A DNA stretch of 64,000 nucleotides, taken from positions 34,417,202 through 34,481,201 of the forward strand of contig OZ025258.1 of assembly GCA_964019135.1 (NCBI GenBank), written 5' to 3'. Below, one piece after another: positions 45,601-63,583 of this stretch. Position 1 is the stretch's first letter, and every line of letters starts with the position of its first letter. Source of the stretch: Arenicola marina. Its lineage: Eukaryota; Annelida; Polychaeta; Arenicolidae. The notes beneath the pieces were generated by a model. It did no database searches and had not been told where the DNA came from. It saw only the letters and a program-made list of their open reading frames with translations. The position numbers and the translations under genes are program-made.

Positions 45601-48600
45601 AATTAGTGTGACTAATGAGTCCTTTATATGTAGCATACTCTCCGGTCTTGTAGTTAAAGATCAAGATCAAATGTATCGTTATTGAGTAACGTCTTATTGA
45701 CATTAGTGTCTTCGCAGCAGCGGGAACCTTTGAAGCATTTGTCATTGGATGCGTTTTCCTTTCAGCTGGGAAGACCTTGCAGATCTTCAATATAGAGATC
45801 AAGAGCAAGATGAAGGCTCACAACATGACGGAGGAGGTTCAGTACTGGAAGTGGATCAGCGTCAACACCGTGGGGCTCGTCACAGACACGGCCGTCTACC
45901 ACTGGGGAATGGAGGGTAAGTCACCATAGACACGGCCGTCTACCACTGGGGAATGGAGGGTAAGTCCTGACAGACACTGCCGTCTCCCACTGGGGATGGA
46001 GGGTAAGTCCTGACAGACACGGCCGTTTACCACTGGGGAATGGAGGGTAAGTCCTGACAGACACTGCCGTCTCCCACTGGGGATGGAGGGTAAGTCATGG
46101 CAGACACGGCCGTCTCCCACTTGGGATGGAGGGTAAGTCCTGACAGACACTGCCGTCTCCCACTGGGGATGGAGGGTAAGTTCTGACAGACACTGCCGTC
46201 TCCCACTGGGGATGGAGGGTAAGTCCTGACAGACACTGCCGTCTCCCACTGGGGAATGGAGGGTATGTCATGGCAGACATGGCCGTCTCCCACTGGGGAA
46301 TGGAGGGTAAGTCACGGCAGACACGGCCGTCTACCAAACACCTTGAAGAAGAGGGGAATTTTCGTGCATTGATAGTGATCCGAACTATTTATTTGGCTGT
46401 TTCAGTGTTCGGAATCTCAATACACACTTAAGTACACAGACTGCTACTTTGTCGTGGAAAAGTCTACCCCTCTCGTCTTGCTCCCATACATCTTCTTGGG
46501 AGACCCTATGCTTAATCAATTTAGCTCTCACGTTTCTCTCTTTTTATTTTTTTACAGGTGATTCTCAGCCACTGAAGATGTTCGACCGTCATTCCAGTCT
46601 GTCCGGTTGTCAGATCATTAACTACAGGACCGATAGCAAACTGCAATGGCTTCTCCTCATAGGGATCTCAGCACAGGTCAGCGACCTAAAGGAGGAACAG
46701 GTTCAGGGACATTCAAATGATTGGGCCATTAATATGCATGGAGTTTGTACTTGTACCAGCCTTATTGAACAGAGATCATAATTGTATAAGATTGACCGTC
46801 TTGAACCATCTTTGCTTAAATAAAACCTTTATCTTTTTTACTGTACATTTAGTTTAATCTAATGCCCTTATAACTTTATAGATTTATTTTAAATTGTAAA
46901 TTGTTGTATTACGTGGATATTATTTTGTGGGAAATTCCAACCTACGTAAGTGCCTCGACTTTTTTTTCACCATTGGATTTGTCATTGCAGCAAAACCGCG
47001 TGGTTGGTGCCATGCAACTGTACTCCATGGAACGCAAGGTCAGTCAGCCCATTGAAGGTCACGCCGCGGCCTTCGCCGAGTTCAAGATGCCTGGAAACAG
47101 CACTGAGACAACCCTCTTCTGTTTCGCCGTGCGCGGGGCGCAGGGAGGCAAGGTTAGTGACCTCTCTCCCCTCCCCTCTTCTGTTTCGCCGTGCGCGGGG
47201 CGCAGGGAGGCAAGGTTAGTGACCTCTCTCCCCTCCCCTCTTCTGTTTCGCCGTGCGCGGGGCGCAGGGAGGCAAGGTTAGTGACCTCTCTCCCCTCCCC
47301 TCTTCTGTTTCGCCGTGCGCGGGGCGCAGGGAGGCAAGGTTAGTGACCTCTCTCCCCTCCCCTCTTCTGTTTCGCCGTGCGCGGGGCGCAGGGAGGCAAG
47401 GTTAGTGACCTCTCTCCCCTCCCCTCTTCTGTTTCGCCGTGCGCGGGGCGCAGGGAGGCAAGGTTAGTGACCTCTCTCCCCTCCCCTCTTCTGTTTCGCC
47501 GTGCGCGGGGCGCAGGGCGGCAAGGTTAGTGACCTCTCTCCCCTCCCCTCTACTGTTCCGCCGTGCGCGGGGCGCAGGGCGGCAAGGTTAGTGACCTCTC
47601 TCCCCTCCCCGGTTCTGTTTCGCCGTGCGCGGGGCGCAGGGAGGCAAGGTTAGTGACCTCTCTCCCCTCCCCGGTTCTGTTTCGCCGTGCGCGGGGCGCA
47701 GGGCGGCAAGGTTAGTGACCTCTCTCCCCTCCCCTCTACTGTTCCGCCGTGCGCGGGGCGCAGGGCGGCAAGGTTAGTGACCTCTCTCCCCTCCCCGGTT
47801 CTGTTTCGCCGTGCGCGGGGCGCAGGGAGGCAAGGTTAGTGACCTCTCTCCCCTCCCCGGTTCTGTTTCGCCGTGCGCGGGGCGCAGGGAGGCAAGGTTA
47901 GTAACCTCTCTCCCCTCCCCTCTCTCCCCTCCCCTCTTCTGTTTCGCCGTGCGCGGGGCGCAGGGAGGCAAGGTTAGTGACCTCTCTCCCCTCCCCTCTC
48001 TCCCCTCCCCTCTCTCCCCTCCCCTCTTCTGTTTCGCCGTGCGCGGGGCGCAGGGAGGCAAGGTTAGTGACCTCTCTCCCCTCCCCTCTTCTGTTTCGCC
48101 GTGCGCGGGGCGCAGGGCGGCAAGGTTAGTAACCTCTCTCCCCTCCCCTCTTCTGTTTCGCCGTGCGCGGGGCGCAGGGCGGCAAGGTTAGTGACCTCTC
48201 TCCCCTCCCCTCTTCTGTTTCGCCGTGCGCGGGGCGCAGGGCGGCAAGGTTAGTAACCTCTCTCCCCTTCCCTCTTCTGTTTCGCCGTGCGCGGGGCGCA
48301 GGGAGGCAAGGTTAGTGACCTCTCTCCCCTCCCCGGTTCTGTTTCGCCGTGCGCGGGGCGCAGGGCGGCAAGGTTAGTAACCTCTCTCCCCTCCCCTCTT
48401 CTGTTTCGCCGTGCGCGGGGCGCAGGGCGGCAAGGTTAGTGACCTCTCTCCCCTCCCCTCTTCTGTTTCGCCGTGCGCGGGGCGCAGGGAGGCAAGGTTA
48501 GTAACCTCTCTCCCCTCCCCTCTTCTGTTTCGCCGTGCGCGGGGCGCAGGGAGGCAAGGTTAGTGACCTCTCTCCCCTCCCCTCTTCTGTTTCGCCGTGC

Positions 48601-63583: not shown

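What the first reader, a model, noticed from the sequence alone, without database searches (positions are those of the whole stretch)
45882..61090. Splice junctions repeatedly seed tandem arrays in one clathrin gene
Seen directly: in introns 3, 5 and 14 the array unit consists of the terminal exon bases, the 5' splice site and the first intron bases, giving about 10, 41 and 5 donors. At intron 11 the array unit is intron end, acceptor and exon-like start, four copies at 40-bp spacing. PES1 exon 11 shows a single duplication of the same kind. Unit lengths (43-44, 62, about 100, 40, 71 bp) and sequences are unrelated, so these are independent events. Other introns have arrays that do not include a junction, so the process is not universal. 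Inference: the genome may have a duplication mechanism or a selective filter that favours repeats spanning exon-intron borders. Internal tandem duplication of an AGGT-bearing segment is also a proposed route of intron gain.
Basis: partly seen in the sequence, partly recalled or inferred. Interest (0 to 1): 0.9.

Follow-up and report, generated by a model that had tools for sequence, protein, structure and literature searches.

The report
Splice-site minisatellites in an animal clathrin gene
In an animal clathrin gene, several DNA repeats grew out of exon-intron junctions and copied the splice signal up to dozens of times; the pattern is real and striking, but the same kind of repeat is already described in lancelets, and this window does not prove that junctions are specially targeted.

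Summary
The window holds clathrin heavy chain exons 1-18 and most of PES1. Tandem arrays cross the donors of clathrin introns 3, 5 and 14 (10, 41 and 5 donor copies) and the acceptor of intron 11 (three copies plus the real one); PES1 has one 71-bp duplication across an acceptor. The units are unrelated, so these look like separate events. Missed: the intron 2 array starts right after the GT of its donor. That junctions are favoured is only weakly supported: with introns collapsed to pre-array length, 5 of 21 arrays cross a junction against 1.4-2.1 expected (P 0.008-0.053, post hoc). Clathrin alone gives P about 0.08; threshold-free tests give 0.18 (KS) and 0.025 (Fisher). The extra donors score like the real ones, 52 of 53 would cause a premature stop, and their intactness needs no selection. 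The arrays lengthened existing introns rather than making new ones. Lancelet 'mirages' (Adh3, globins, PGBD5) are the same kind of structure, with the intron-gain idea already in print. Best reading: ordinary minisatellites, tolerated at junctions because the genuine site survives. The species was not identified.

The parts
30614..63583 (+). Clathrin heavy chain gene, exons 1-18 (932 aa, continues beyond the window)
   Evidence: tblastn; splice model; PDB match over residues 1-931
11239..19029 (+). PES1 (pescadillo) gene, 16 exons modelled, first coding exon(s) not found
   Evidence: Pescadillo_N and BRCT_2 in Pfam
45882..46336 (+). Array across donor of clathrin intron 3 (exon end 45915), 43-44 bp, 10 donor copies
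47112..49659 (+). Array across donor of clathrin intron 5 (exon end 47152), mostly 62 bp, 41 donor copies
60605..61090 (+). Array across donor of clathrin intron 14 (exon end 60656), 99-105 bp, 5 donor copies
58817..58995 (+). Array across acceptor of clathrin intron 11 (exon start 58978), 40 bp, 3 copies plus the real acceptor
15575..15710 (+). PES1: 71-bp duplication across an acceptor (exon start 15678)
39633..39841 (+). 34-bp array in clathrin intron 2 starting two bases after the exon end (39630); exon part not significantly alike
52216..53253 (+). Array in clathrin intron 7 ending 10 bases before the acceptor of exon 8
61841..61967 (+). 93-bp imperfect duplication in clathrin intron 15 ending 11 bases before the acceptor; a gapped alignment reaches to just before the AG
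50045..50760 (+). 40-bp array inside intron 5, no junction (contrast case)

Best explanation
These are minisatellites of the kind called 'mirages' in amphioxus. A short tandem duplication arises anywhere in or near an intron (inferred). If it falls across a junction, one copy of the genuine splice site stays beside the exon, the mRNA can stay normal, and the duplication is tolerated (inferred). The pair then grows by unequal exchange or slippage into the intron: downstream of a donor, upstream of an acceptor (direction of growth shown by the sequence; process inferred). The extra splice sites are by-products that are intact mainly because they are young and homogenised. No junction-targeting device is needed.
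For: The five junction arrays extend into the intron only, and the exon-side copy keeps the reading frame. 16 of 21 arrays lie wholly inside introns and none lies wholly inside the 4,604 coding bases of the two models; units of ten arrays are unrelated. Counts at junctions are within 2- to 4-fold of a uniform-placement null once introns are collapsed. The donor in the intron 5 array is no more conserved than expected: 11 of 62 columns vary among the 35 of 41 copies that align without gaps, and 10 invariant donor columns have P 0.12. In intron 14, copies 2-4 share changes absent from the exon copy; the outermost copy carries some of those changes but keeps two states of the exon copy, as in end-excluded homogenisation. 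Amphioxus papers report the same anatomy at both ends of introns, with globin RT-PCR suggesting normal splicing.
Against: There is a mild excess at junctions (5 of 21 against 1.4-2.1 expected; 4 of 14 arrays with about 3 or more copies, P 0.015-0.022, and 5 of 17 with units of 30 or more, P 0.015-0.016), and 8 of 21 arrays cross or come within 12 bases of a junction against 2.3 expected (P 0.001, cut-off chosen after seeing the data). Equal-strength donors might be expected to compete, so neutrality of 40 extra donors is not obvious. End-exclusion is not seen in intron 5. No RNA, no second haplotype and no relative was available.
Confidence: 0.7

Rival explanations
1. Junctions are true hot spots: something about transcription, splicing or base composition at exon borders makes tandem duplications start there more often.
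For: 5 of 21 arrays span a junction, P 0.008-0.053 by overlap rule; 8 of 21 span or lie within 12 bases, expected 2.3; subsets by copy number or unit length P 0.015-0.022; Fisher combination of positions P 0.025.
Against: KS test P 0.18; clathrin alone P 0.075-0.083 and arrays of 200 bases or more P 0.059-0.12; counting 4 instead of 5 (leaving out intron 11), P 0.04-0.16; three of the five lie in introns whose collapsed length is under 500 bases, where a random unit often hits an end.
Confidence: 0.17
2. The extra donors are useful: they act as decoys, retain U1, or let the intron be removed in steps.
For: No full copy has lost its donor: all 41 in intron 5 are identical at CAAG/GTTAGT, 10 in intron 3 and 5 in intron 14 keep GT; 52 of 53 extra donors score the same as the real one. 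The 62-bp unit of intron 5 also has a pyrimidine tract and, further on, a CAG nine codon-aligned bases before the donor (seen).
Against: Donor columns are no more conserved than the rest of the unit (P 0.12). Use of 52 of 53 extra donors and 3 of 3 extra acceptors of intron 11 gives a premature stop. No conservation data.
Confidence: 0.06
3. The arrays mark intron birth by duplication of an AGGT-bearing exon segment.
For: Every intron 5 donor copy contains AGGT (41); the model is published, also for amphioxus globins.
Against: The used acceptors of introns 3, 5 and 14 lie outside the arrays, with non-array sequence between, and the arrays of introns 3 and 14 contain no AGGT.
Confidence: 0.02
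4. The arrays are assembly artefacts.
For: Repeats of this kind have been misassembled or differ between assemblies in amphioxus.
Against: Copies differ: 8 kinds of 40-mer among 41 copies and spacings of 55, 62, 76 and 90 in intron 5, 43 and 44 in intron 3. The exact copy numbers remain unproven.
Confidence: 0.05

Closest known systems
Amphioxus 'mirages' (Adh3, globins BflGb6 and BflGb9, troponin C, PGBD5); PMC3087553 and PMC3902484, passages read
   Same: Minisatellite-like tandem copies of an exon-intron boundary, at either end of an intron, units of 10 to about 160 bases, splice signals kept in many copies; first copies of the PGBD5 repeats abut splice sites, as in intron 2 here
   Different: Up to 41 donor copies and four junction arrays in one gene here. 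Species not identified; splicing and polymorphism not testable here. The original 2002 paper was not held
Amphioxus VCBP3 intronic exon copies; PMC2632668, passages read
   Same: Complete or partial exon copies, some with canonical splice sites, lying in introns and alike to the adjacent exon
   Different: Not described there as minisatellites in the passages read
Intron gain by tandem duplication of AGGT (Rogers model; potato RdRp, fission yeast); PMC4974935, passages read
   Same: Tandem duplication carrying splice signals
   Different: Here existing introns are lengthened; the acceptors do not come from the donor arrays
Dual-specific AGGT splice sites in tandem repeats (human UBC); PMC10809524, abstract and outline read
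   Same: Array of repeated potential splice sites inside one gene
   Different: There the repeats are ubiquitin units and the sites are used; here use would nearly always break the frame

Membership tests
Amphioxus mirage | Tandem repeat unit spans an exon-intron boundary | tested here: met
   Five arrays; the intron 11 exon part is the weakest
Amphioxus mirage | Both donor and acceptor boundaries can be affected | tested here: met
   Three donor arrays, two acceptor cases
Amphioxus mirage | Unit length in the reported 10-160 bp range | tested here: met
   40 to 105 bp; range from PMC3087553
Amphioxus mirage | Outer copies excluded from homogenisation | tested here: inconclusive
   Seen in part in intron 14, not in intron 5, where the exon copy equals the consensus
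Amphioxus mirage | Normal splicing despite extra sites | not testable with these tools
   No RNA data; of the alternatives tested only the model with the genuine sites and one extra donor of intron 14 stay open in frame
Amphioxus mirage | Length polymorphism or somatic instability | not testable with these tools
   Single haplotype
Amphioxus mirage | Cephalochordate host | tested here: inconclusive
   No genome held; four scans with repeat motifs and one with clathrin found nothing in prokaryote and viral collections, which say little about an animal
Rogers-type intron gain | New intron's two splice sites come from two copies of the duplicated segment | tested here: not met
   Acceptors of introns 3, 5 and 14 lie outside the arrays

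The most novel reading that the evidence does not exclude
Exon borders in this genome are genuine hot spots of tandem duplication, and some arrays, such as the intron 5 array whose units carry a pyrimidine tract, a CAG and a donor nine codon-aligned bases after it, serve as stepwise splicing modules.
Probability: 0.07. Interest if true: 0.8.

Novelty: new member of a known kind. Interest (0 to 1): 0.35.

Why it matters
Four junction arrays in one conserved housekeeping gene, one with 41 equal-looking donors, make a good natural test of how the splicing machinery picks one of many matching sites. If a blind genome-wide count showed real enrichment, it would give a direct route to studying how gene structure mutates at exon borders. 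As it stands it extends a phenomenon described in lancelets to a clathrin gene and to PES1.

Tried and rejected
Junction targeting as a firm conclusion: rejected because significance depends on the overlap rule, the subset and post hoc choices. Selection on extra donors: no extra conservation found. Intron gain: rejected for these introns. The intron 2 exon tail as a copy of its array: not significant (16 of 454 control 40-mers score as well). The exon 8 head against the intron 7 array: below the shuffle mean. Shared ancestry of the units: no more than chance. Rfam at gathering thresholds and ARAGORN on the window: nothing. Species identification through repeat motifs or clathrin in the viral and prokaryote collections: nothing; six stretches matched a pattern but none encoded a relative. 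My first repeat scan lacked a drop-off rule and hid one repeat at 51501 (shown); redone, it gave the same clusters plus that one. For the counts that repeat was added by hand from TRF. The scan covers offsets 20-260 without gaps; short-unit and low-complexity TRF rows (for example at 49642, 53669 and 54347) are not among the 21. The collapsed intron lengths are computed slightly differently from those.

Full report
What is there. No whole genome is held for the window, so everything rests on 64 kb. A tblastn with recalled human proteins located clathrin heavy chain and PES1 on the plus strand. Splice models built from the window give 18 clathrin exons (932 aa, no stop) and 16 PES1 exons (602 aa, no stop). 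The clathrin protein matches PDB clathrin heavy chains over residues 1-931, and the PES1 protein carries Pescadillo_N and BRCT_2.

The arrays. TRF and an ungapped offset scan (offsets 20-260) with no hit in 10 Markov-resampled windows find repeats; the scan gives 29 clusters in the window, of which 21 lie in the two gene models. Five of the 21 cross a junction: donors of clathrin introns 3, 5 and 14, the acceptor of clathrin intron 11, and one PES1 acceptor. Donor copies number 10, 41 and 5. The exon part of the intron 11 unit is weak by free alignment (53 of 470 controls as good) but in register matches 11 of 18 bases, which none of 352 other offsets reaches. The PES1 case is a single 71-bp duplication, 43 of 50 bases alike. 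Three further repeats stop 2, 10 and 11 bases from a junction, in introns 2, 7 and 15. For intron 2 the exon tail is not significantly like the unit (16 of 454 controls as good).

Is it more than chance placement? Long arrays inflate introns, so introns were collapsed to one unit per array before placing units at random. With at least 5 bases on each side of the border, 1.79 junction hits are expected against 5 seen, P 0.027; with at least 1 base 2.13, P 0.053; with at least 10 bases 1.36, P 0.008. Placing each unit in its own intron gives 2.03 expected, P 0.026. Subsets, each under both nulls: units of 30 bases or more, 5 of 17, P 0.015-0.016; about three or more copies, 4 of 14, P 0.015-0.022; clathrin alone, 4 of 20, P 0.075-0.083; arrays of 200 bases or more, 3 of 12, P 0.059-0.12. 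Counting four instead of five, without intron 11, gives P 0.04-0.16. Eight of 21 cross or come within 12 bases of a junction, 2.3 expected, P 0.001, but the cut-off followed the data. A threshold-free KS test gives about 0.18, Fisher's method about 0.025. The window was also one in which a reader had seen the pattern. I read this as a hint, not a demonstration.

What the copies would do. By a simple count of matches to CAG/GTAAGT, all 41 donors of intron 5 and all 5 of intron 14 score the same, and 9 of 10 in intron 3 do. These copies were found with patterns that contain GT; a separate check found no full intron 5 copy that had lost its donor, and the last, partial copy in intron 3 ends before the donor. 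Using an extra donor would give a premature stop in 52 of 53 cases; the exception, the second donor of intron 14, adds 35 codons in frame. All 3 extra acceptors of intron 11 give a stop; the PES1 copy was not tested. The used site is therefore most likely the one beside the exon (inferred; no RNA). How the first of many equal donors wins is not shown; exon definition and first-transcribed-first-bound are guesses from general knowledge. The donor is not specially conserved: in 35 of the 41 intron 5 copies that align without gaps, 11 of 62 columns vary, and ten invariant donor columns have P 0.12. The six other copies were left out of that count.

History of the arrays. In intron 14 the three middle copies share changes that the exon copy lacks; the outermost copy has part of those changes and part of the exon-copy states. 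In intron 5 the exon copy equals the consensus, so that array is young or homogenised. Units of ten arrays show no relatedness beyond chance: 3 of 45 pairs had 5 or fewer of 100 shuffles as good. The introns do not look born from the arrays: acceptors lie outside them, with other sequence between, and the arrays of introns 3 and 14 contain no AGGT. Conservation of these intron positions in other animals was not tested.

A filter seen elsewhere in the window. None of the 21 arrays lies wholly in the 4,604 coding bases modelled. In a 979-aa intronless open frame on the minus strand (23276-26212) all four repeat clusters have offsets of 33 or 99 bases, multiples of three. This fits purging of frame-breaking exon repeats, with junction-spanning ones tolerated. 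The open frame has no Pfam match, so it may not be a gene.

Prior art. In passages read of PMC3087553, amphioxus globin genes carry minisatellite-like duplications of intron-exon boundaries, named mirages after the Adh3 gene, at both ends of introns; the authors' RT-PCR suggests that regular splicing is kept, and they draw a model of intron gain from them. In passages read of PMC3902484, lancelet PGBD5 has 60- and 108-bp repeats whose first copies abut splice sites, and the authors link them to mirages in globin, Adh and troponin C. Passages of PMC2632668 mention intronic copies of exons with canonical splice sites in amphioxus VCBP3. The 2002 source paper was not held. Ten library searches showed me no genome-wide test of such arrays and, in the one that named clathrin, no clathrin case. 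Several listings were cut (for example 20 of 222 and 15 of 1,857 papers) and most subscription papers are not held, so this is weak evidence of absence. The animal here was not identified; a lancelet is suggested by resemblance only.

Verdict. It is a new and rich example of a known kind.

Noticed in passing
55239-58977 (clathrin intron 11): Seven copies of a conserved 47-bp element ending TTTCACAGGTTAAC at 55832, 56156, 56658, 57156, 57575, 58088 and 58444: a long-period tandem structure, copies about 320-510 bases apart.
   Followed up: partly
23276-26212, minus strand: 979-aa intronless open frame with four internal repeats of 33 or 99 bases, all multiples of three; no Pfam match.
   Followed up: partly
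61423: Clathrin intron 15 begins with GC instead of GT (AAG|gcgagt).
   Followed up: no
14996, 16533, 37772: Three copies of a dispersed motif (the third with 3 mismatches) in what look by eye like tRNA-like short interspersed elements (label recalled).
   Followed up: partly
52216-53263 (clathrin intron 7): A roughly 1-kb array rich in TATAAC runs to 10 bases from an acceptor whose pyrimidine tract is interrupted; TATAAC resembles a branch site (branch-site resemblance recalled).
   Followed up: no
1-883: 46-bp array, 19 copies, at the window edge; its relation to any exon is unknown.
   Followed up: no
3469-4005: Open frame with collagen triple-helix repeats (Pfam PF01391).
   Followed up: no
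59140-59640 (clathrin intron 12): Looks by eye like the tail of a non-LTR retrotransposon (read, label recalled, not searched).
   Followed up: no
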